Assembly (NCBI RefSeq): GCF_014779765.1
Contig: NZ_JACXZA010000002.1
Coordinates: 1,018,469 to 1,082,468 of the forward strand
Origin: Paenibacillus terricola
GTDB lineage: Bacteria > Bacillota > Bacilli > Paenibacillales > Paenibacillaceae
DNA length: 64,000 nt
Reading direction: 5' to 3'
Positions 54,811 through 64,000 of this stretch are shown in pieces; position 1 is the stretch's first letter; each line of letters begins with the position of its first letter. The position numbers and the translations under genes are program-made. The notes beneath the pieces were generated by a model, which saw only the letters and a list, made by a program, of their open reading frames with translations, ran no database searches and had not been told where the DNA came from.

Positions 54811-54864
54811 AAGGGCCGAATGGGCCATCCGGGGCAAATGGCTCGATACGTGAATATAGTGTTA
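54811..54864 (-). repeat. attC-like repeat remnant
   Basis: Only one end of the repeat is kept: GGGCCGAATGGGCC hairpin-like part, CGATACGTGAATATAGTGTTA. The other two thirds are deleted. It is the leftmost recognisable copy. Confidence 0.6.
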
Positions 54865-54927
54865 GGTGAAGTACTTACCTTCCCGAAACCACTATTTCTT
54901 CATTGAACTCTTCTTTATTAATTTCTT

Positions 54928-55334
54928 CTATTCGAATTGTGAATATGAAAATGGCAATAAATCACTTATCTCTACCTTATTCATTTTTTGTTCATCGTTA
55001 TTTAAAATGACTTTGATACCGGGGCTATATTCTAATAACATTTGACGGCAATTTCCACACGGAGACAATAGATGATTCGGGGCATCTTTACAAACAGCTA
55101 CTATGGTTTCAAACTCTCTTTCTCCTGCTGCTCTTGCCACTCCCATAGTGATAAACTAAGCACATGATCCATGAATTCCATAACAATTAATCCCGACATA
55201 GATTTTCCCGTTTTTACAACGGATCGCGGAGCCTACTGTATGCGTATATGACTTATTGTCGAAGTTCTTTTAATTACTTCTTTCGCTCTTTCAATTAGTT
55301 CATAATCTTCATCTGTCAGCTCATAAAATCTCAT
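54928..55334 (-). pseudogene. Cytidine deaminase, inactivated (cassette gene)
   Basis: Starting at ATG 55334 (MRFYELTDEDYELIERAKEVI) the frame reads to a stop after HIRIQ; a shift restores HTVGSAIRCKNGKIYVGINCYGIHGSCA. A TAG then occupies the position of the catalytic Glu of the CxE motif (GSCA-stop-FITMG where GSCAE is expected). The rest is intact with the zinc motif SPCGNCRQMLLEY. One frameshift and one GAG-to-TAG change therefore disable a small homotetrameric-type deaminase of about 135 residues. No repeat separates it from the membrane-protein gene to the right. Confidence 0.8.
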
Positions 55335-55351
55335 CAAGGTTACCTCGATTT

Positions 55352-55678
55352 CTAATTATTTAGTACGGTGGGTATTAATATCAGCCCTAAAGCTGTAATT
55401 ATTGAAATTCTTGTTGCAAATCTATTGAGTTTTCTGTTTTCTTCGGATTTATACCATCCCTTGAACTGAAAATAATTTCGATATAGCACAAAAAATAGAA
55501 CGAAATTTCCTACTGACATAAACCAATTATACAAAGGTTCTCCATAAATCAACGAATAAAGATATCGTTCAACTCCACCAAACACGAGCATTATCAACAT
55601 AAGTAAAATAAGTATTCTCAATATTTCAAAGAAAGCCGAAAACGCTTTAGACATAAAATCATTCCATCCCTTCAACAT
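55352..55678 (-). CDS. Small membrane protein (cassette gene)
   Basis: 108 residues with three predicted transmembrane helices (ILRILILLMLIMLVFGG; WFMSVGNFVLFFVLY; ISIITALGLILIPTVL). No family recognised. Start uncertain: ATG 55678 or the in-frame ATG 24 bases later, which has GAAGGGATGG upstream. It follows a repeat remnant. Confidence 0.6.
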   Translation of the reverse strand: MLKGWNDFMSKAFSAFFEILRILILLMLIMLVFGGVERYLYSLIYGEPLYNWFMSVGNFVLFFVLYRNYFQFKGWYKSEENRKLNRFATRISIITALGLILIPTVLNN

Positions 55679-55694
55679 ACTGCATGGATTTCCA

Positions 55695-55740
55695 CTAACG
55701 TTTTTGTCTCCCTAACCCTCACTAGCTTTTGCGAGTAAGC
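55695..55740 (-). repeat. attC-like repeat remnant
   Basis: CTAACGTTTTTGT then AACCCTCACTAGCTTTTGC match the left end and first arm of the repeat with several changes; the rest is gone. Confidence 0.55.
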
Positions 55741-55758
55741 AAACGTTTTACTGTTCAT

Positions 55759-56046
55759 CTACTGATCTCTTTTTCGTTTCAGTTTCCATAAACTATACCG
55801 AATCAAATAATAAATTATAGAAATAATCAAAAATATTAATATGTATTCTAACCAACCAAAAGGTTCTTTCCACCAAACAAACGAAACTTGATTAGATACT
55901 TCAGCTGTTTCAAGATAATAGTTAAAAACCTTTGTATTATTATCCTTAATCGTCAAGTAACCCTGAAGAAAAAACAATTCAAATGAGATTAATAAAATTA
56001 AAGGTACAAAAATTGATTCAATAAAAATCTTACTTTCTTTCTTCAT
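55759..56046 (-). CDS. Small two-helix membrane protein (cassette gene)
   Basis: 95 residues with two transmembrane helices (FVPLILLISFELFFLQGY and WLEYILIFLIISIIYYLI) separated by about 30 residues that probably lie outside the cell, and a basic C-terminus KLKRKRDQ. No family recognised. ATG follows AAGGTG at 5 bases. AT-rich. Confidence 0.65.
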   Translation of the reverse strand: MKKESKIFIESIFVPLILLISFELFFLQGYLTIKDNNTKVFNYYLETAEVSNQVSFVWWKEPFGWLEYILIFLIISIIYYLIRYSLWKLKRKRDQ

Positions 56047-56103
56047 AGAAACACCTTCTTATAGGCTTTGGCTTTGTTAAATATATCTTTTAGACGGTTT
56101 CAG

Positions 56104-56261
56104 ATAACGTCTTTGAATTCACGAACCCTCACTGGCTTAAGGGCGCCAGCCCGGGTACGACGGACTCAGCCAGTGCAGGGTTGTCCGGCTGTCTTCACTT
56201 CCTCGAAATTCCTCGATCCGGACCGAGGGCCGTATGGCCCGATGCGTGAATATGATGTTAT
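56104..56261 (-). repeat. attC-like repeat 1
   Basis: Complete copy, 158 bases: ATAAC...ATTCACG at the left, GCGTGAAT...GTTAT at the right, with the three internal stems. First-arm tip GGGC/GCCC. Left border follows the small membrane-protein gene. Confidence 0.78.
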
Positions 56262-56315
56262 ATGAAGGAACCGCCCGCATCATCGAATAACAAGCAAGAT
56301 GACTTTTCTCTTCTC

Positions 56316-56607
56316 CTATTCTGTTATTAATTCAAATGTTTTTGCCTCTATTTTTATTATGTCTCCTGATATCATTTCAATTTCATATGTATTTGTTTTT
56401 TCATTCGTTTTATACATATGACTTGCACCGTTTATGTATAATGATTCTCCCCAAGGTGCGCTGTGTGGTACTACAAACAGTTTGTCTGTAAGGTTTATCT
56501 GGACCTTCGATAAAAACATTCAATCTAAGAACCAAGGTATGTAAATTCCACAAGTAATTTATTTCTTTAAGCTCTGAATCATGAAAATAGATTGAATTAA
56601 AATCCAT
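56316..56607 (-). pseudogene. Frameshifted hypothetical cassette gene
   Basis: ATG 56607 with AGGTG upstream starts MDFNSIYFHDSELKEINYLWNL and reads to VFIEGPDK. The frame then changes near 56515 and the sequence continues as KVQINLTDKLFVVPHSAPWGES ... GDIIKIEAKTFELITE. The two parts fit one protein of about 96 residues of a beta-rich uncharacterised type that begins FHDSELKEI. The cassette ends match almost perfectly (TTATATGAAGGAACC against the complement of GGTTCTTTCATATAA), so the cassette itself is intact. Confidence 0.6.
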
Positions 56608-56662
56608 AATAATCACCTGCTTTGATCTTCAAATTCATTTCATTGATCTTCGGTTCTTTCAT

Positions 56663-56678
56663 ATAACGTTGTTGTGTT
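56663..56678 (-). repeat. attC-like repeat remnant (terminal boxes only)
   Basis: ATAACGTTGTTGTGTT retains the outer box of a repeat whose remaining ~140 bases are deleted; it follows a well-matched cassette end. Confidence 0.55.
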
Positions 56679-56689
56679 CCTACTTTGAA

Positions 56690-57298
56690 TTACTTACTTA
56701 CACTTATTCTCTTATTCAACTTCTTAAAAGCAGTGGATTCGTTATTAGATCTTATAAAGTTTAATATCTCATTGGCACACTCACTCGATCTCATTATTTC
56801 AGTATTGAGTTCAAGATCATATTCATTAAAGCAGTATACTCTATCGTATTGTGCACTTGCTAAGCCAACCATCCTGTCTCCCCTAAGCATTTCTCTTCTA
56901 GCAAGTTCTTCCCTTGTGCATTTAACTGATACGAAAATGACAGGGTGATCAGATAATAATTCAAGGCAAGTATTGTACCATTGGTCGTTATCTATAACAG
57001 TATCTACAACTACATTATTACCCATCGCTGAAAATAGCTTTATTGTCGAATAGTACAATGAAATCAACGGATTTGTAAGAATTTGATTTGCTAATTGTCC
57101 ATCGTCTGCACCATTTGTTTCAATATTCGGATATGTAGTGTTAATGAAATCAATGTAACTATGAAATATCCCATTACAAAAATTATCAATTGATAAATGT
57201 TGAAATGGGATTTCAATTTGAGTCAATAGTTCATTCGATATGCTTGTCTTTCCAGAACTTGAAGTGCCATTAAGAAGAACTATAATCCCTTGCTTCAA
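56690..57298 (-). CDS. P-loop kinase, chloramphenicol phosphotransferase-like (cassette gene)
   Basis: About 202 residues. Walker A LLNGTSSSGKTSISNELL at the N-terminus and VIDNDQWYNTCLELL, VSVKCTREELARREMLRGDRMVGLAS (lid-like Arg region) further on follow the pattern of chloramphenicol 3-O-phosphotransferase-like proteins. Substrate unknown; an antibiotic is possible but not shown. TTG start at 57298 with AAAGGCGG at 6 bases is preferred over a GTG at 57340 that lies inside the cassette end. Confidence 0.75.
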   Translation of the reverse strand: MKQGIIVLLNGTSSSGKTSISNELLTQIEIPFQHLSIDNFCNGIFHSYIDFINTTYPNIETNGADDGQLANQILTNPLISLYYSTIKLFSAMGNNVVVDTVIDNDQWYNTCLELLSDHPVIFVSVKCTREELARREMLRGDRMVGLASAQYDRVYCFNEYDLELNTEIMRSSECANEILNFIRSNNESTAFKKLNKRISVSK

Positions 57299-57340
57299 TA
57301 GAATCCGCCTTTCAAAATATAATTTTTGCGTATCTTTCAC

Positions 57341-57497
57341 CTAACGTCTTTGTATTCACGAACCCTCACTGGCTTAAGCACGTAAGCGCGGGTCCGATGG
57401 ACTTAGCCAGTGCAGGGTTGTCCGGCTGCTCCCTCTTCCCCGAAATTCCCCTGTAGGACCGCGGGCCGGATGGCCCGATGCGTGAATATAGTGTTAT
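57341..57497 (-). repeat. attC-like repeat 2
   Basis: Complete, 157 bases. The tip of the first arm reads CACGTAAGCGCG, one of the divergent versions. Confidence 0.78.
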
Positions 57498-57523
57498 CGG
57501 ATGTTCTTGACCTTCTGAAATAC

Positions 57524-57982
57524 TCACACATTCTCTTCTATTAGTTTTTTTAGTTTATTATTTCGATATTCTAAAAAGCTCTTTATATATTTCTTCAATA
57601 TGAGTTGCTCTATGATCTTGCCTACTATTCCTAATGGAGCTTCAAATCTTAATATATCAATCATCAATGTTTTCTCATCTTGTTCAATAAATTCATGTCG
57701 ATGTCTTAAGCTCTTAAATATTCCTCTTTGCATTACATCAGTGAATAACTCAGGTTCTTGATATTCTATTATTTTCGAAGTTAGTCGTTGTCTTACAAAT
57801 AGATGTTTTGCTTCAAATGTGACCGAATCTCCAGGTCCTATTCGTCCTTCCCTAACACCATCAACAGCTAATTCTCTCGTATGCGGCCAAACAGTTTTTG
57901 TATGTACTTCAATATCTCTGGCATAATCAAAACAAATCTGAATCGGCGCATTAATAATGATTTCGGTCCTAAGAGTAATCAA
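57524..57982 (-). CDS. SRPBCC (START-like) family protein (cassette gene)
   Basis: About 152 residues with the SRPBCC opening TEIIINAPIQICFDYARDIEVH and strands VTFEAKHLFVRQRLTSKI and FKSLRHRHEFIEQD, then a C-terminal helix (IIEQLILKKYIKSFLEYRNNKLKKLI). These proteins bind hydrophobic ligands. TTG start at 57982 preceded by GGCGG. Cassette ends TTATCGGA/TCCGATAA are complementary. Confidence 0.8.
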   Translation of the reverse strand: MITLRTEIIINAPIQICFDYARDIEVHTKTVWPHTRELAVDGVREGRIGPGDSVTFEAKHLFVRQRLTSKIIEYQEPELFTDVMQRGIFKSLRHRHEFIEQDEKTLMIDILRFEAPLGIVGKIIEQLILKKYIKSFLEYRNNKLKKLIEENV

Positions 57983-58021
57983 AGAACTACCGCCTTTCCT
58001 ATAGCTCTTCACGAATTTCCG

Positions 58022-58169
58022 ATAACGCCTTTGTATTCACGAACCCTAACTGGCTTAAGGGAGCCAGCCCGGGTCCGACGGACTTTGCCAGCGCAGGGTT
58101 GTCAGCTGCGCTAACTTCCTGACTGCCGGACCGAGGGGGGGATGGCCCGACGCGTGATTATGGTGTTAT
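58022..58169 (-). repeat. attC-like repeat 3
   Basis: 148 bases, complete but divergent: second arm shortened (GTCAGCTGCGC) and last hairpin altered (GAGGGGGGGATGGCCC). Confidence 0.72.
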
Positions 58170-58205
58170 CAGAAATTTGTGCCTTCTCTGTAAATACTAA
58201 TAAGA

Positions 58206-58727
58206 TTAGTCATGAAACATTATTGTAATCCTAAAATGAGATGGATCTTCTCTATAAGCTATGTTCTCCATCACCTCTAAAAAACTTTTACTAGTCTCTC
58301 GATAATCCACTACTTCTATTACTGGTTTATCATCCCAGGTATAGTCCGTATACTCAATTATTTGATCCCAGTTATAATTAAAAATTTCATCCAATGTATA
58401 CCAAGTACAAGTATGATACTCACCACATTCATATTCTTGCCTGATCTCTTCTGACACATTATTGGGCAAACCTCTTGGTACACTTATATATGGTATGTTT
58501 TCAGAGTTCCGTTGGTTTGCTAGAATGGCTTGTAGGTCATACAATTTACCGTGAAAAACCAAATCGTTCCACTCCACATGCCAGAGCGCATTCTTCTTCT
58601 CTGGATACAACAATGCATAATCGCTCTTCTTCCATTTATCTAAAGATACCCAAATTCCATTTTGTTTTTCTACATCATCTCTTCTAAAGAATTTTCTTTC
58701 AGTGAAGCAAAGCATTATTGTTCCCAT
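58206..58727 (-). CDS. Hypothetical cassette protein with RGLP motif
   Basis: 173 residues. YALLYPEKKN, DLQAILANQRNS, ISVPRGLPNNVSEEIRQEY and HTCTWYTLDEIFNYNWDQ form a pattern I have seen in uncharacterised proteins of phage and mobile DNA (PRGLPxxVS...HS.SWLTLxEL), but no function is known to me. ATG follows AAAGGAG. Both cassette ends agree over 13 bases (TTATCAGAAATTT and its complement), the best match in the array. Confidence 0.7.
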   Translation of the reverse strand: MGTIMLCFTERKFFRRDDVEKQNGIWVSLDKWKKSDYALLYPEKKNALWHVEWNDLVFHGKLYDLQAILANQRNSENIPYISVPRGLPNNVSEEIRQEYECGEYHTCTWYTLDEIFNYNWDQIIEYTDYTWDDKPVIEVVDYRETSKSFLEVMENIAYREDPSHFRITIMFHD

Positions 58728-58759
58728 TTTTTCTCCTTTTGTTTATACATAAATTTCTG

Positions 58760-58916
58760 ATAACGTCTTTGTATTCACTAACCATCACTGGCTTAAGGGG
58801 GCTGGCCCTGGTCCGACGGACTTAGCCAATGCAGGGTTGTCCGGCTGCTCCCACTCCCCCGATATGCCTCTGCCGGACCGAGGGCCGGATGGCCCGATGC
58901 GTTTATATGGTGTTAT
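58760..58916 (-). repeat. attC-like repeat 4
   Basis: 157 bases, complete. First-arm tip is GGGGGCTGGCCCTGG; inner left box is ATTCACT rather than ATTCACG and right box CGTTTAT rather than CGTGAAT. Confidence 0.75.
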
Positions 58917-58969
58917 ATGAAGTTATTTACTTCCTTCATTCTCCTTACAGAATCATTCTCCTTACAGAA

Positions 58970-59302
58970 TTATTCTTCTTGATAATATCTATTTAATACG
59001 TCCTTCAGTTCAGTCTTTTGGGGTACCAAAATAAATCTAGAAAAAACTTCTGTACCTGATTCTATTGTTTCATCTATGATTTCATAGACATCAACAACCT
59101 TAATAAATTTCCATTTAACTTCTTCACTACATAGATTTTTATAGGCTATTTCAGCTTCTTTACCCTTCTTTTCTGCAATTAATACTGCAACGTCTTTTGT
59201 TTCCGCTTTGATTAATATAATAGATTCTTCGTATGTATCCGTATCTTCATTTTCTTCTAATTCTTTGAACGATTTAAACAGCATTTGAACAGTAAACCAC
59301 AT
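58970..59302 (-). CDS. DUF4288 domain-containing protein (cassette gene)
   Basis: 110 residues: WFTVQMLFKS, EESIILIKAETKDVAVLIAEKKGKEAEIAYKNLCSEEVKWKFIKVVDVYEI and GTEVFSRFI match DUF4288, a family of unknown function common in mobile regions. ATG 59302 has GGGAGG at 9 bases. Confidence 0.83.
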   Translation of the reverse strand: MWFTVQMLFKSFKELEENEDTDTYEESIILIKAETKDVAVLIAEKKGKEAEIAYKNLCSEEVKWKFIKVVDVYEIIDETIESGTEVFSRFILVPQKTELKDVLNRYYQEE

Positions 59303-59368
59303 TTTTTTATACCTCCCATATATAGATTGGGATGATCTTCAGGTTTAAACTTGTTGCAATAATTTCAT

Positions 59369-59527
59369 CTAACGTCTTTGTATTCACGAATTCTCACTGG
59401 TTTAAGGGGCGCATGACCCGGGTCCGACGAACTTAGCCAGTGCAGGGTTGTTCTGTTGCTCACGTGTCCCCGAAATCCTTCTGTCGGTCCGAGGGCCGAA
59501 TGGCCCGATGCGTGAATATGGTGTTAT
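59369..59527 (-). repeat. attC-like repeat 5
   Basis: 159 bases, complete; first-arm tip GGGGCGCATGACCC. Minus-strand end reads GTTAGAT, an exact match to the integron R-prime consensus GTTRRRY. Confidence 0.78.
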
Positions 59528-59997
59528 GCGAAGTCCTTGTCTTCATCGAGTTCCTCTAGATTCAAAGGTCTTGTAGCTTTTTCTAACTCCCCTTGAGAAT
59601 CTAAATATCTTAATGTCTGTTCGACATCATCTTTCTCTAAAGTTTTCATAATAATCAATTTGTCCATGAATAGTCCTAGTGGATGTGTCATTGGATTTTT
59701 AAAATGTTCAACAAGCTTTTCTGGTGTCGTCATATTACACCAACGACTAGACCCATCATTAAAAACTATTGTTACCTCTATGATATTCCAACTCAATATA
59801 TCATCATCAAATTTCCAATCCATCATCTGTAATACGAACACTTCCCCCAAATCAAAATACGCTTGGTTTATCCATACTCGTTTACCATGATCTCCTTTTA
59901 TTCGATACTTTGCATTCTCTTGATTGATTACTTTGTATTTATTCCCTCTTGTAAGTGCATGCTCATACACGCCAATACTAGTACAAGTTACTATCAT
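59524..59997 (-). CDS. Hypothetical cassette protein
   Basis: About 157 residues. The frame is open into the repeat, but ATG 59997 (MIVTCTSIGVYEHAL) or TTG 60006 with AAGGTGAT upstream are realistic starts. The first 50 residues (LTRGNKYKVINQENAKYRIKGDHGKRVWI) resemble a small SH3-like module common in Bacillus hypothetical proteins; the acidic C-terminus is NLEELDEDKDFA. No family assigned. Cassette ends TTATGCGAA/TTCGCATAA match. Confidence 0.65.
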   Translation of the reverse strand: MIVTCTSIGVYEHALTRGNKYKVINQENAKYRIKGDHGKRVWINQAYFDLGEVFVLQMMDWKFDDDILSWNIIEVTIVFNDGSSRWCNMTTPEKLVEHFKNPMTHPLGLFMDKLIIMKTLEKDDVEQTLRYLDSQGELEKATRPLNLEELDEDKDFA

Positions 59998-60049
59998 TTC
60001 TTCCAAGTAATCACCTTCATTGATGTTTATATTAATACAGGGGTTTCGC

Positions 60050-60208
60050 ATAACGTCTTTGTATTCACGCACCCTCGCTGGCTTAAGGCGCGAATGCGCT
60101 GGGTCCGACGGACTTAGCCAGTGCAGGGTTGTCCGGTTGCTTCCACTTCCCCGAAATCCCTCTGCCGGACCGAGGGCCGTATGGCCCGAGGCGTGAATAT
60201 CGTCTTAG
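60050..60208 (-). repeat. attC-like repeat 6
   Basis: 159 bases. First-arm tip is GCGCGAATGCGC, a compensated version of the usual GGGC/GCCC stem. The right end reads CTTA instead of GTTA. Confidence 0.76.
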
Positions 60209-60235
60209 GTGAAGTCCTCACTTCTTAGATTCCGC

Positions 60236-60613
60236 TTAATCTCTATGATCTTCTCTATATAATTTTCGAATTTTTTCTAGTATCAGATTTAGTTTCTTAT
60301 TAAAAGACTCTTTATATTCATCTCTAATATCATCATGATTGAATCCATACCAACTATAAGATTCAATGATTTACTCTCTAACTTCTTCAATCTTCTTATC
60401 TATAATTAGTCCCAGGATATTAGCCGTTAAGGTATCATGTTCATCTTTTGGAGCTCCACTCGCAATCAATCCTGTTGGATCTAGCTCATTCACAATGTCT
60501 CTTATCTTTAAGAATTGCTCAAAATGATTCTTCCTCAATTCATTTCTTTCTTCTTTACTTAATCGTTTTGTAATATGCTTTCCTCCTTTATTATCTTTCA
60601 TCTGTGATTCCAT
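60236..60613 (-). pseudogene. DUF1871-like cassette gene with in-frame stop
   Basis: The first 80 codons (start 60613; good ribosome site TTTCCTCC complement GGAGG near it) end at TAA 60371-60373: FLKIRDIVNELDPTGLIASGAPKDEHD resembles DUF1871. The same frame continues for 44 more codons (IIESYSWYGFNHDDIRDEYKESF ... EDHRD) to a stop at 60236 just before the repeat. So a single nonsense codon splits one protein of about 125 residues, or a truncated 80-residue form is made. Cassette ends TTAGGTGAA/TTCACCTAA match. Confidence 0.65.
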
Positions 60614-60655
60614 CTTTGTTTACATCATTTGTTCATTCCATCTTGAAGATTTCAC

Positions 60656-60796
60656 CTAACGTCTTTGTATTCACGAGCCCTCACTGGCTTAAGGGCGCCA
60701 GCCCGGGTCGTCAGATTTAGCCAGTGCAGGGTTGTCCGAGCTGCTCCCGCTTCCCCGAAATGCCCCTGCCGGACCGATGCGTGAATATGGTGTTAG
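60656..60796 (-). repeat. attC-like repeat 7 (short form)
   Basis: 141 bases. It lacks exactly the third hairpin (GAGGGCC...GGCCC), going straight from CCGGACC to GATGCGTGAATATGGTGTTA; the other arms are present. Confidence 0.76.
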
Positions 60797-60840
60797 ACGA
60801 TGCCTCGACTTCCTGTATATGCTACCAATGTATTCATTTA

Positions 60841-61260
60841 TTAACTTCTTCCTTCGTAATCAAAAAACTTCAATCCGTGATTTCGCGAACCGCTTTTAAT
60901 CTCATCTATCGTCCATAAATGATCACTTAACTCATCGAGTGCAAATCCATTAAACCTAGATAAAATATTAATTACGACATAAGATACTTCTTTGTTTCCT
61001 AAATGTCTCCCCGAAATATCAATCTGAAGTATATGGTGTGATTCAATAATCTTATTTAACTTAATGTTGTTATCATTAACCTCTATTTCCTTTAAGAGAG
61101 ATCTCTCAAGATCGAACTCGATATATAGTACAGGATCTCCTCCCTCAAGATAAATCCATTGTTTTTCTTCAACATTGTTATAAATCAGTTCTAGTGAATT
61201 GAGAGCTTTGACTAGAGGAGCTCTATCGTACAAATCAATTAGAACAAAAACAGATCTAAT
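60841..61260 (-). CDS. Hypothetical cassette protein
   Basis: About 139 residues if translation starts at ATT 61260 (preceded by GGGTGAT), giving SVFVLIDLYDRAPLVKALNSLELIYNN; the first conventional start is TTG 61233, without a ribosome site. IYLEGGDPVLYIEFDLERSLLKEI and LQIDISGRHLGNKEVSYVVINILSRF suggest an alpha/beta protein. No family recognised. Confidence 0.6.
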   Translation of the reverse strand: MRSVFVLIDLYDRAPLVKALNSLELIYNNVEEKQWIYLEGGDPVLYIEFDLERSLLKEIEVNDNNIKLNKIIESHHILQIDISGRHLGNKEVSYVVINILSRFNGFALDELSDHLWTIDEIKSGSRNHGLKFFDYEGRS

Positions 61261-61328
61261 AAGGAATCACCCATTCGCTTTAGACTTTGTATTTGGCTAA
61301 TATATTGTTCATATTCTCGGGGTTTCGT

Positions 61329-61486
61329 CTAACGTCTTTGTATTCACGAACCCTCACTGGCTTAAGGGCGCCAGCCCGGGTCCGACGGACTTACCCATTG
61401 CAGGGTTGTCCGGCTGCCGCCTACTTCTCCGAAATCCCGCTGCCGGACCGAGGGCCGAATGGCTCGATGCGTGAATATGGTGTTAT
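61329..61486 (-). repeat. attC-like repeat 8
   Basis: 158 bases, complete; minus-strand end GTTAGAC fits GTTRRRY. First-arm tip GGGC/GCCC. Confidence 0.78.
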
Positions 61487-61512
61487 CCGAAGGAACCGAC
61501 TTCTACGAAATA

Positions 61513-62163
61513 CTAACAAACTGTTCTTAGTTCATTTCCTATTTTATTAATTATTTCACTTATTGGAGTTTTGTTCATTCTGACCTGTTGTAAGATGTCT
61601 AATTCAAACCATCTTCGACCTATCACGACTGCTTCAGGGTAATCTATGCTGTAATTAAATAAGAATCGTTCTATCTGATCTTTAGTCAAGGTTCTCAATA
61701 CGTGATCAGTCCTTAAAACACGTTGAATTTCGCCTAAATATTTCTCTTCTTTCTTGATATTAATTTTCCTTGACTTAATAAATGTGTTTTCGGAACTGTT
61801 AAGAGAGGTACCTCCAGCCACCGGATCAGTTGCAGCATATCTTACCGTTCTAACTCCAGACATAACTATTGCTCCGAAACAAAGAATACATGGTTCAGTT
61901 GTTGTATAAAGAATACAATCTTTTAGAATGTCAGAATCTACAGAATTCATTTGCATTAATACATTTATTTCTGCGTGGGCAAGTCTATTTGAGCAAATTT
62001 GTTTCTCTGGTGCAGTTATCTCATGTATTCTATTTCTCCCTCGACTAATTATTTCTCCCCTTTGATCAACCAGTACTGCACCAATTGGAATGGAACCATT
62101 ACAATATGCCTCCCATGCTTCTTCGAAACAAGCCTTCCAAGGTTCTGTGAGATATTCCCACAT
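61513..62163 (-). CDS. Nucleoside/deoxycytidylate deaminase family protein (cassette gene)
   Basis: 216 residues. Zinc motifs AHAEINVLM (HAE) and TTEPCILCFGAIVMSGVRTVRYA (PCxxC) are complete, so catalysis is expected: deamination of a purine or pyrimidine base. GSIPIGAVLVDQRGEIISRGRN is the usual N-terminal strand pair. The C-terminal 70 residues are an extra domain not seen in TadA. ATG follows GGTGGTG. Confidence 0.87.
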   Translation of the reverse strand: MWEYLTEPWKACFEEAWEAYCNGSIPIGAVLVDQRGEIISRGRNRIHEITAPEKQICSNRLAHAEINVLMQMNSVDSDILKDCILYTTTEPCILCFGAIVMSGVRTVRYAATDPVAGGTSLNSSENTFIKSRKINIKKEEKYLGEIQRVLRTDHVLRTLTKDQIERFLFNYSIDYPEAVVIGRRWFELDILQQVRMNKTPISEIINKIGNELRTVC

Positions 62164-62203
62164 ATTTTACACCACCAAGATATATATTTTTGGGTTCTTT
62201 CAG

Positions 62204-62362
62204 ATAACGTCTTTGTATTCACGAACCCTCACTGGCTTAAGGGGCGCATGCCCCGGGTACGATGGACTTAGCCAGTGCAGGGTTGTCCGGCTGCCACCAC
62301 TCCCCCGAAATTCCCCTGCCGGACCGAGGGCCGGATGGCCCGATGCGTGAATATGGTGTTAT
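62204..62362 (-). repeat. attC-like repeat 9
   Basis: 159 bases, complete; first-arm tip GGGGCGCATGCCCC. Confidence 0.78.
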
Positions 62363-62404
62363 ATGATGTCAGCGTCTTCTTTGAACAGCATACAATAATT
62401 GGTT

Positions 62405-63154
62405 CTAATCCTTGATTATTATTGTAACCTTATGTTCCTCAAGCACTTGAAGGATAGTCTTAATAGACTTTGGTTTGTTAGCATATCCGCTAATCTCTAT
62501 GGTAAAAGGGGGTAGTGCGCCAAACCCACCACAAAAACAATCCAATAAACTATCAATACACCCTCCATAGTAGCCACCTGGTCCGTTAATAGCCTCGCCT
62601 AGTGCAAAATAAAAAGAAACCTCATCTGTTATATGTCGACCATCAAGACAATACGATTGACAAGCTAGATTATGGCTCTCTGCAAACTTATGGTAAATTC
62701 TTATTATCTCCAACCATATATCGCGCTGTTTCTTTGTAAGGTGTAACCAAATACCATATTCTCTGTGAGTAGGATTCCTTAAAAGATCCCAAAGCTCAAG
62801 GGTTTCCATTGAAAGACCAGTTGGCAGGTGACCCTCAAGAGTAAAATCTCGACCATCTATTAAATCAGAAGATGAAAGTACTTTCGGAGAACTCAAGGCA
62901 AAATAATAACTCCCGATAGTGCAACCATCATTATCTAATATATTTATATATAAATTACTGATAGACTGTTTTCGGCCTAAACAACTCTGTCTAAAACCAT
63001 CACTGAAATGAAAATTAATATATCCGAGTTGAAAGTAATCTTCAGTATGTTCTTCTGCAATATATGTATGTGAATTTGATATCTCAATATACTCGAAATG
63101 TCCGAGTATTATATTGTTACTTTCATCTTCTAAACTATACTTATAAAACATCAT
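62405..63154 (-). CDS. Barstar-family protein with an N-terminal extra domain (cassette gene)
   Basis: 249 residues. The last 85 residues carry CLDGRHITDEVSFYFALGEAINGPGGYYGGCIDSLLDCF, the barstar ribonuclease-inhibitor motif (helix with YYG..xDsLxDC), ending in VTIIIKD. The first 160 residues (YKYSLEDESNNIILGHFEYIEI; WLEIIRIYHKFAE) are an unrecognised domain. Barstar-like proteins neutralise RNase toxins, so this may be an immunity protein or antitoxin; no toxin gene is next to it. Confidence 0.78.
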   Translation of the reverse strand: MMFYKYSLEDESNNIILGHFEYIEISNSHTYIAEEHTEDYFQLGYINFHFSDGFRQSCLGRKQSISNLYINILDNDGCTIGSYYFALSSPKVLSSSDLIDGRDFTLEGHLPTGLSMETLELWDLLRNPTHREYGIWLHLTKKQRDIWLEIIRIYHKFAESHNLACQSYCLDGRHITDEVSFYFALGEAINGPGGYYGGCIDSLLDCFCGGFGALPPFTIEISGYANKPKSIKTILQVLEEHKVTIIIKD

Positions 63155-63205
63155 GACCTCCTTAATTAAGTTATTAATTCTTCAAACTCATTACGCCGAT
63201 TTCTT

Positions 63206-63364
63206 ATAACGTCTTTGTATTCACGAACCCTCACTGGCTTAAGGGGCGCATGCCCCGGGTCCGACGGACTTAGCCAGTGCAGGGTTGTCCGGCTGCTTCC
63301 TCTTCCCCGAAATGCCTCTGCCGGACCGAGGGCCGTTAGGCCTGAAGCGTGAATACGTTGTTAT
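63206..63364 (-). repeat. attC-like repeat 10
   Basis: 159 bases, complete; third hairpin is GGGCCGTTAGGCCT with a swapped loop, right end ACGTTGTTAT. Confidence 0.76.
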
Positions 63365-63408
63365 ATGAAGTCTGTGTCGCCTTGAGTTTACTTTCACATA
63401 TGCTTTTC

Positions 63409-63831
63409 CTATGTTTTTCTTCTTTGAGGCATCCTTCGCATAAAACGTTCTGAATCTTTCTCATAACCATATTGTTCATATAATCCATGGGCATCTAGTG
63501 TCCCTAATATTCCTGTCATCCATTCATATTCTTCTGACTTAGTAATGATTTCAATCAGTTTCTTTCCTATGCCTTGCCCCTGATACTCTTTTATTACAAA
63601 CACATCACACAAGTAATATACTGTTGCTTCATCTGTGACCAGCCGTGCAAATCCTATCTGCTTATCATTATGGTAAACTCCATAGCAATGGGAATTTTCA
63701 ATGGATTTTAATATACGCTCTGGTGGTCTCCTGTTAGCCCAGTAACTTTGGGCCAAGTAGTCCAGAACTACTTGCCTATTTATTCTCTCTTTGTCATCCG
63801 TTATTAGATATTCTTTGTACAAGACCTCCAC
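63409..63831 (-). CDS. GNAT family N-acetyltransferase (cassette gene)
   Basis: About 140 residues with the acetyl-CoA signature FVIKEYQGQGIGKKLIEIITK and preceding YLCDV strand; GFARLVTDEATVYYL before it and EQYGYEKDSERFMRR at the end are typical GNAT core. GTG start at 63831 with AGGGGG at 6 bases. Cassette ends TTATATGAAGTC/GATTTCATATAA match. GNAT genes are common in integron cassettes. Confidence 0.86.
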   Translation of the reverse strand: MEVLYKEYLITDDKERINRQVVLDYLAQSYWANRRPPERILKSIENSHCYGVYHNDKQIGFARLVTDEATVYYLCDVFVIKEYQGQGIGKKLIEIITKSEEYEWMTGILGTLDAHGLYEQYGYEKDSERFMRRMPQRRKT

Positions 63832-63878
63832 GTAAATCCCCCTGAACAATTGTTTTAAAACTCTTACACAGATTTCAT

Positions 63879-64000
63879 ATAACGTCTTTGTATTCACGAA
63901 CCCTCACTGGCTTAAGGGCGTTAGCCCGGGTCGTCAGACTTAGCCAGTGCAGGGTTGTCCGGCTGCTCCCGCTTCCTCGAAATCCCTCTGTCGGACCGAG
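63879..64000 (-). repeat. attC-like repeat 11, cut by window end
   Basis: The left 122 bases of a copy; first-arm tip GGGCGTTAGCCC. The rest lies outside the window. Confidence 0.75.

What the first reader, a model, noticed from the sequence alone, without database searches (positions are those of the whole stretch)
54811..64000. Integron-like gene-cassette array in a Paenibacillus-type chromosome, with long multi-armed attC-like sites
Ten complete and one cut GC-rich repeats of 141-159 bases separate small, unrelated, same-strand, AT-rich genes. Repeats are bounded by TAAC and GTTA boxes (minus-strand ends such as GTTAGAT, GTTAGAC and GTTAGGT fit the R-prime consensus GTTRRRY). An inner ATTCACG/CGTGAAT pair, five and eight bases from the ends, resembles L boxes. 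Integrons are rarely reported in Bacillota, and attC sites of this size with three internal hairpins are unusual, so this may be a new integron lineage or a related cassette system.
Basis: partly seen in the sequence, partly recalled or inferred. Interest (0 to 1): 0.95.

Follow-up and report, generated by a model that had tools for sequence, protein, structure and literature searches.

The report
Second kind of bacterial integron
Genomes of the Paenibacillus family carry rows of small gene cassettes, shared between genera in different orders and often lying just behind a recombinase gene that lacks the extra domain marking known integron integrases, so they are likely a second, overlooked kind of integron that captures and reshuffles genes.

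Summary
In detail: ten complete and two partial GC-rich sites separate small AT-rich genes, and the array runs off the contig end and continues on a second contig. A dedicated tyrosine recombinase sits at a third contig's end; in a sister genome the same gene, an attI-like site and a first cassette share one contig, and in 19 relatives site arrays follow it. Each cassette begins at G^TTA, and its first ~16 bases are complementary to the 5' arm of its own downstream site (198 of 244 cassettes, against 131 of 4820 shuffles), as expected if circular cassettes cross over at G^TT, as in integrons. A fixed mismatch at position 10 interrupts this arm. Homologous cassettes in different genomes share no neighbours (0 of 46). 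The recombinase lacks the IntI insert and groups outside the IntI clade. It or its remains occur in 98 of 295 family genomes, 96 of which hold the sites; canonical IntI is over cut-off in 2 of 396 Bacillota genomes. Related arrays follow patchless recombinases in other Bacillota and in Bacteroidota. Conclusion: a cassette system that works like an integron but is not an IntI integron. Recombination itself is inferred.

The parts
63880..64000 (-). attC-like site cut by the contig end (R' side present)
63363..63882 (-). cassette body with GNAT acetyltransferase-like gene (ORF 63409-63897)
   Evidence: own-end complementarity 10 of 10 variable positions
63207..63363 (-). attC-like site, 157 nt
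62361..63209 (-). cassette body, 249-aa protein with Barstar-like C-terminus (ORF 62405-63154); its end plus the following site recur at 98.7% over 316 bp at the start of contig C6, followed there by another cassette
62205..62361 (-). attC-like site, 157 nt
61485..62207 (-). cassette body, deaminase-like gene (ORF 61513-62163)
61330..61485 (-). attC-like site, 156 nt
60795..61332 (-). cassette body, ORF 60841-61233 without Pfam match
60657..60795 (-). attC-like site, 139 nt
60207..60659 (-). cassette body, ORF 60371-60613
60051..60207 (-). attC-like site, 157 nt
59526..60053 (-). cassette body, ORF 59524-60072 without Pfam match
59370..59526 (-). attC-like site, 157 nt
58915..59372 (-). cassette body, DUF4288 gene (ORF 58970-59302)
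58761..58915 (-). attC-like site, 155 nt
58168..58763 (-). cassette body, ORF 58206-58727 without Pfam match
58023..58168 (-). attC-like site, 146 nt
57496..58025 (-). cassette body, SRPBCC-type protein, Pfam match just below cut-off (ORF 57524-58012)
57342..57496 (-). attC-like site, 155 nt
56664..57344 (-). cassette with CPT-like (PF07931) gene (ORF 56690-57340), ending in a remnant site of which only the R' part (56664) was recognised
   Evidence: sequence
56260..56666 (-). cassette body, short ORF 56316-56519
56105..56260 (-). attC-like site, 156 nt
54864..56107 (-). probably fused or decayed cassettes (ORFs 55759-56046, 55352-55678, 54928-55146); the ends do not pair
   Evidence: the pair that fails; score 2 of 10
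54811..54864 (-). remnant R''/L'' half of a site at the far end of the array

Best explanation
This is a chromosomal array of gene cassettes, each ending in an attC-like site, which is likely captured, excised and reordered by a dedicated tyrosine recombinase acting at an attI-like site just 3' of its own gene, in the manner of an integron but without the integron-integrase insert. Shown: the array; a recombinase with the catalytic residues of its family; an attI-like site with direct repeats beside it in 12 loci; cassette-specific complementary ends that place the crossover at G^TTA; homologous cassettes in different genera and contexts; and co-occurrence of recombinase and sites. Inferred: a free cassette is a circle whose site folds as a single strand, with a 16-17 bp R stem made of the cassette's own two ends, a 5/8-nt unpaired spacer, a 7-bp L stem and a branched head. 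The recombinase would join this folded strand to double-stranded attI, cutting between G and TTA. Strand choice may rest on position 10 of the R stem, an A.C mismatch on the top strand and a G.T wobble on the bottom strand. The recombinase gene is read toward attI and the cassettes, so read-through from its promoter could express the first cassettes.
For: Own-end pairing of at least 8 of 10 variable positions: 198 of 244 cassettes, against 14 of 237 for the two halves of the same physical site and 131 of 4820 within-locus shuffles. In other Bacillota (at least 7 of 9): 26 of 39 against 19 of 693. Linkage: in G001:C13 the recombinase, attI-like site, one short cassette and the start of a site are contiguous. 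Of 20 loci fetched, the 19 with more than 180 bases beyond the gene hold 1 to 25 paired sites behind it on its strand, the only strand scanned. Co-occurrence: 96 of 98 recombinase-positive genomes hold sites, against 95 of 197 negative ones. Mobility: 32 between-genome homologous cassette pairs, 0 of 46 comparable neighbours shared; in a cassette shared by three genera homology starts exactly at ACG^TTA. attI-like sites: 12 aligned; the best upstream direct repeat lies 34-37 nt away in 10 and 71 nt away in 2 (no shuffled control). R231, K256, H321, R324 and H347 are invariant in 18 rows, and Y356 is lost only in a truncated row (their catalytic roles are recalled). Bottom strand more stable than top in 185 of 214 folds.
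Against: No recombination event was observed. In the window's own genome the recombinase contig, C6 and the window contig are not joined. In 10 of the 20 fetched loci the scan found no attI-like site near the gene, and three of the 12 aligned ones were placed by hand. Homologous recombination between repeats could also delete or duplicate cassettes, and one site swap that would fit it is seen (L117). In nine homologous pairs the downstream site was more alike than the upstream one in 7, in several by little. 29 of 222 cassette ORFs of at least 60 aa point the other way and 22 of 244 cassettes have none. 95 recombinase-negative genomes hold sites; of the 15 richest, 6 carry broken recombinase pieces and 9 show only other recombinase hits. 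The strand-choice role of position 10 is inference only. A first, stricter site scan (71 sites) gave a weaker own-end signal, which I put down to missed sites mispairing cassettes.
Confidence: 0.85

Rival explanations
1. An ordinary IntI integron, or a cluster of attC sites without integrase (CALIN), acquired from another phylum.
For: Same general parts: R/L boxes, cassettes, G^TT junction. The best sequence match of the recombinase among solved structures is the integron integrase IntI4, 2a3v.
Against: The insert of IntI is absent: 15 residues of the query face 57 of 2a3v; the TIGR02249 profile matches this protein only outside about 185-234 and stays under cut-off. IntI rows form a separate clade, 100/100. 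R stem of 16-17 bp against 7-9 bp in four cassettes of one canonical IntI array, read by eye. GTTRRRY in 67 of 244.
Confidence: 0.05
2. The sites are recombined by the host Xer system, as in dif-like modules, and the dedicated recombinase is a bystander.
For: The host has its own XerD-like, XerS and a third Xer-like recombinase, and nine of 15 site-rich genomes without the recombinase show only other recombinase hits.
Against: 96 of 98 recombinase-positive genomes have sites against 95 of 197 (species are related, so the P value is only indicative). The attI-like TTA lies 89-299 nt 3' of that gene in 11 of 12 aligned loci and 928 nt in the twelfth, L118. The folded, branched site is unlike a short double-stranded dif (recalled, not tested).
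Confidence: 0.05
3. Static repeats (terminator-like or REP-like) between horizontally acquired genes, shuffled only by homologous recombination.
For: Sites within a genome are alike, and a cassette in G035 has a different site from R'' on than its homologues.
Against: Cassette-specific pairing between two ends hundreds of bases apart has no role in that model; 27 of 86 sites with a variant L'' box still pair 7 of 7; a recombinase and attI-like site lie at the array head in several loci.
Confidence: 0.05

Closest known systems
Sedentary chromosomal IntI integrons (superintegrons)
   Same: Dedicated tyrosine recombinase, attI-like site, long array of mostly same-direction small genes, attC-like sites with R/L boxes, unpaired spacer and branched head, junction at G^TT, complementarity between a cassette's start and its own R'' box (the last seen in a canonical array).
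   Different: No IntI insert and outside the IntI clade. R stem 16-17 bp with a fixed mismatch at position 10. R' is mostly TTANNNGAAA rather than GTTRRRY. Spacer 5/8 nt. No LexA box found. About 105-residue N-terminal extension, with a sub-threshold HARP match.
Treponema chromosomal integrons
   Different: That paper treats the Treponema enzyme as IntI; here the recombinase is patchless.
XerA/XerCD recombinases
   Same: Catalytic and SAM-like domains, no insert; NF040815 (XerA type) is the best NCBIfam profile, 204.4 bits, under its cut-off of 220.
   Different: Own attI-like site and cassette array; N-terminal extension.
CALIN (clusters of attC lacking integron integrase)
   Same: Site-bearing genomes without an intact recombinase, such as G003.
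   Different: The sites belong to the patchless system; 6 of 15 such genomes checked keep broken recombinase pieces.

Membership tests
IntI integron | Dedicated tyrosine recombinase with R-K-H-R-H-Y active site | tested here: met
   R231, K256, H321, R324, H347 invariant in 18 rows; Y356 in all but truncated L119
IntI integron | IntI-specific insert (patch, I2 domain) | tested here: not met
   Absent against 2a3v and TIGR02249; +43/44 residues in five IntI rows and +32 in a sixth, +5 or less in the array-bearing patchless rows listed
IntI integron | Integrase falls in the IntI clade | tested here: not met
   8 IntI rows one clade 100/100; 12 Paenibacillaceae rows another, 96/93; backbone between them unresolved
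IntI integron | NCBIfam integron integrase TIGR02249 over curated cut-off | tested here: not met
   199.3 bits against 265
IntI integron | attI site beside the integrase | tested here: met
   12 loci aligned, TTA 89-299 nt from the stop in 11 and 928 in L118; not found by the scan in 10 of 20 fetched loci
IntI integron | attC fold: R and L stems, unpaired central spacer, variable head | tested here: met
   (predictions)
IntI integron | R' box GTTRRRY | tested here: not met
   67 of 244
IntI integron | Extrahelical bases in the L stem | tested here: inconclusive
   L boxes pair ungapped, 7 of 7 in 134 and 6 of 7 in 67 of 218 sites; the inner L stem was not examined for bulges
IntI integron | Cassette junction between G and TT | tested here: met
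   Left boundary of a cassette shared by three genera at ACG^TTA; own-end pairing
IntI integron | Cassette order varies; cassettes mobile between genomes | tested here: met
   0 of 46 neighbours shared for 32 homologous pairs; indirect
IntI integron | SOS (LexA) control of the integrase | tested here: inconclusive
   No GAACNNNNGTTC in the upstream stretches of 22 genes, L119 having only 22 bases; two 2-mismatch matches to the longer box; consensus recalled, no positive control run
IntI integron | Recombination attI x attC, bottom strand | not testable with these tools
   needs an assay
IntI integron | Cassette promoter Pc | not tested
   no transcript data
XerCD/dif | Acts on a short double-stranded dif site for dimer resolution | not tested
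   the host keeps separate XerD-like and XerS genes

The most novel reading that the evidence does not exclude
Integrons exist in a second, IntI-independent form, spread over Bacillota and Bacteroidota, in which Xer-like recombinases without the I2 insert recombine folded cassette sites. Each cassette carries a self-complementary barcode of about 16 bp at its two ends, and a fixed G.T/A.C position in that stem marks the strand. The form would be either an ancestral state of integrons or a parallel invention of them, so hairpin recombination would not require the I2 domain.
Probability: 0.6. Interest if true: 0.95.

Novelty: new variant of a known kind. Interest (0 to 1): 0.9.

Why it matters
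A large survey of complete genomes reported only one complete integron in Firmicutes (Limnochorda pilosa) and called integrons very rare there (PMC9024848, passages). Here a cassette system whose recombinase, whole or broken, is found in 98 of 295 and whose sites are found in 191 of 295 sampled Paenibacillaceae genomes seems to have been missed, presumably because search tools look for IntI and for canonical attC. It widens the reach of gene-cassette exchange to Gram-positive bacteria. It also bears on an open question: how integrases could gain a hairpin-specific domain before hairpin sites existed, called a chicken-egg paradox in PMC4792948 (passages). A recombinase without the insert working on folded cassette sites would make that question directly testable. 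The complementary cassette ends offer a simple detector for such arrays in other genomes.

Tried and rejected
Canonical IntI in this genome: the PF00589 search gave four recombinases; none is over the TIGR02249 cut-off. Rfam: nothing in the window at gathering threshold. tRNAs: none. LexA control: no core box found. A stricter motif scan (71 sites) was replaced by an iterated weight-matrix scan (239 sites) because it missed sites. Hand-written motifs for six distant loci found no sites in L141 and L245 and only a weak signal in L249 (5.29 against 4.42 shuffled). A looser scan of 11 Bacteroidota loci is noisy (6 of 42 against 4 of 958). A second canonical control (G600, L272) gave own-end matches of about 9, 4, 4 and 2 bp by eye, possibly with missed sites. 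Defence link: of ten cassette proteins scanned against PADLOC only the deaminase matched, over a small part of a dCTPase model and weakly one other.

Literature: ten searches listed no report of integrons in Paenibacillaceae; the library holds open-licence papers only and no bioRxiv. Seven papers were seen as passages; all others as listings.
Full report
WHAT IS IN THE WINDOW. The window is G000:C10:1018469-1082468 and ends at the end of that contig. Its last 9 kb hold ten complete attC-like sites, one site cut by the contig end, a half-site remnant at 54811-54864 and an R'-only remnant at 56664, all on the minus strand. Between them lie small genes, one per cassette except at the decayed end. 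Ten proteins were scanned against Pfam: matches include a GNAT acetyltransferase, a Barstar-like protein, a deaminase, DUF4288 and a CPT-like protein, plus VanZ in a gene just beyond the array end; three have no match. A search of the same genome with one site gave 22 matches: 11 at the end of C10, 9 at the start of C6 and 2 short ones near C10:82 and 87 kb. C6 starts inside a second copy of the cassette at window 62361-63209 (98.7% over 316 bp) and continues with a different neighbour. Its sites fade over about 8 kb, and the 27.8-kb contig ends in what reads by eye like the start of a 16S rRNA gene. Cassette bodies average 34.5% GC and sites 54.8% over all loci studied.

THE RECOMBINASE. The genome has four proteins over the phage-integrase cut-off. 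One is XerD-like, one is XerS, one is Xer-like, and the fourth is a 392-residue protein at G000:C11:421-1599, minus strand. C11 breaks off 420 bases 3' of it. Its orthologue in sister genome G001 (78% identical) also lies about 416 bases from a contig end. There the sequence runs: recombinase, an attI-like stretch, TTATCGGACAGACTCGC, a short cassette, GCGAGACCGTCCGATAACACCG, contig end. The two quoted ends are complementary with two mismatches, one at position 10. Recombinase, attI-like site and first cassette are therefore physically linked in G001. The link in the window's own genome is inferred. R231, K256, H321, R324, H347 and (but for one truncated row) Y356 are conserved in 18 relatives.

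RELATIVES. At E<=1e-40 the recombinase, whole or in part, is in 98 of 295 Paenibacillaceae genomes; at most six candidates per genome were scored, and several copies carry stops. I took stretches downstream of it from 20 genomes. L122 ends 180 bases past the gene; each of the other 19 holds 1 (L118) to 25 (L105) paired sites behind it on its strand, the only strand scanned. The scan of these and six genus stretches found 239 paired sites and 244 cassettes.

THE KEY TEST. If cassettes are circles formed by crossover between G and TTA, a cassette's start should match the 5' arm of its own downstream site, not the other half of the site where it now sits. That is what is found. Over ten variable positions, own ends match at 8 or more in 198 of 244 cassettes. 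The two halves of one physical site do so in 14 of 237, and within-locus shuffles in 131 of 4820. In the window and C6 it is 12 of 15. Pairing is 89% or more at positions 4-8, 77-92% at positions 11-16 and falls to 52% at 17. Position 10 is a fixed mismatch, A facing C on the top strand in 224 of 244, hence G.T on the bottom strand. Position 9 is most often A facing A (116 of 244). Positions 12-15 vary in letter yet are 83-89% paired, which points to a pairing constraint. In a canonical IntI array (L204, Calditrichia) the four own-end matches, read by eye, stop at 7-9 bases.

SITE ANATOMY. Consensus R''-side TAACAccATATTCACGC; R'-side TCGTGAATAC, a short gap, ACGTTANNNGAAA. The R''-L'' spacer is 5 nt in 218 of 218 sites and the L'-R' spacer 8 nt in 168 of 218; 27 of 86 sites with a variant L'' box still pair 7 of 7 (21 of 239 sites had no recognisable L box). 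Predicted folds show an R stem of up to 18 bp, the open spacer, an L stem and a branched head. Bottom strand beats top strand in 185 of 214, and the circular form beats the linear form in 198 of 214 with 9 ties (the last follows partly from the pairing itself; 30 of 244 cassettes were not folded). attI-like sites were aligned in 12 loci, nine found by the scan within 260 nt of the stop and three placed by hand (G000, G001, L118). The best upstream copy of their 14-nt core is 34-37 nt away in 10 and 71 nt away in 2, and the TTA of the first cassette follows (no shuffled control). In 10 of the 20 fetched loci the scan found no such site near the gene.

MOBILITY. Among the 244 cassettes, 32 pairs from different genomes are homologous over at least 60% of the query. 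Of 46 comparable neighbours none is shared. One cassette body (767 bp compared) is 93-96% identical in three genera (G001, G035, G114). Identity starts at ACG^TTA. The downstream site travels with it in two of the three (87%), while in G035 the site differs. Over nine homologous pairs the downstream site is more alike than the upstream one in 7, in several by little. Exact or near-exact duplicates occur within genomes.

CO-OCCURRENCE. The site pattern occurs in 191 of 295 family genomes, with 2 control hits in all: 96 of 98 recombinase-positive genomes and 95 of 197 negative ones (species are not independent). Of the 15 negative genomes with most sites, 6 hold broken pieces of the recombinase and 9 only other recombinase hits, not checked further, as CALINs might.

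IS IT AN INTEGRON? It has the logic of one. By the usual definition of the integrase it is not: the additional domain or patch used to recognise intI genes (PMC2426708, passages) is missing. In a tree of 64 proteins (65 given, L249 left out) the eight IntI rows form one clade (100/100) and the twelve Paenibacillaceae rows another (96/93). The order between them is unresolved, and the three Xer rows are long and not one clade. Canonical IntI is over cut-off in 2 of 396 Bacillota genomes. The patchless family reaches 1e-60 in 39 of 398, three of them Paenibacillaceae and several of the rest forms without the N-terminal extension (four candidates per genome scored). Of 100 loci given to a repeat search (80 named, 20), 37 printed rows show any dispersed direct repeat, fewer a regular array. 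Repeated sites bounded by TAAC and GTTA were seen in Flavobacterium enshiense, Rufibacter, Arundinibacter and two other Bacillota genomes (L157, L141, L131, L249, L253). Own-end pairing with the same position-10 mismatch is clear over other Bacillota (26 of 39 against 19 of 693, from 24 loci) and in F. enshiense and Arundinibacter (8 and 4 pairs). It is weak in L249 and under a loose motif over 11 Bacteroidota loci (6 of 42 against 4 of 958). An integrase read toward attI is also known from Treponema (PMC3607928, passages).

PRIOR ART. Ten full-text searches found no description of integrons in Paenibacillaceae. The nearest statements are that Firmicutes integrons are very rare, with one complete case and a few CALIN (PMC9024848), and that Firmicutes are among the phyla with integrons (PMC8618304). 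Preprints and most subscription papers were not searchable.

MECHANISM, WITH ITS STATUS. Shown: array, recombinase, attI-like site, paired cassette ends, junction position, cassettes in different contexts. Inferred: capture at attI, single-strand folding, strand choice by the position-10 wobble and the 5/8 spacer, replicative resolution as in IntI systems (recalled), and expression by read-through from the recombinase side.

Noticed in passing
L023:5489-5938 (G000:C6): A gene in the decayed part of the array matches PF14526, Cass2, 'integron-associated effector binding protein', and PF06445.
   Followed up: no
L117:10248-10450 oriented (G035): A cassette shared by three genera has a different site from R'' onward in this genome, as if attC sites were swapped or converted within a genome.
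   Followed up: partly
L115 (G094), L111 (G085), L105 (G016): Runs of nearly identical short cassettes (389, 165 and 231 bp compared cores), and 22 of 244 cassettes without an ORF of 60 aa or more.
   Followed up: partly
L142, L168, L151, L152, L171: Dispersed repeats near other patchless recombinases (Clostridia, a Firmicutes MAG, Bacteroidota); not shown to be attC-like site by site.
   Followed up: partly
L128 (Undinarchaeales MAG), L129, L130 (Spirochaetota): Recombinases that group near the Bacillota patchless clade in the tree; no regular array in the stretch held.
   Followed up: no
G600:C1:940000-954000 (L272): A canonical IntI with a short array in Bacillota, one of two genomes over the IntI cut-off among 396 searched.
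   Followed up: partly
G000:C10:87331-87371 (L024:9350): A lone site remnant about 1 Mb from the array.
   Followed up: partly
window:54928-55146: Reading frame that by eye looks like the C-terminal part of a cytidine deaminase, in the decayed end of the array.
   Followed up: no
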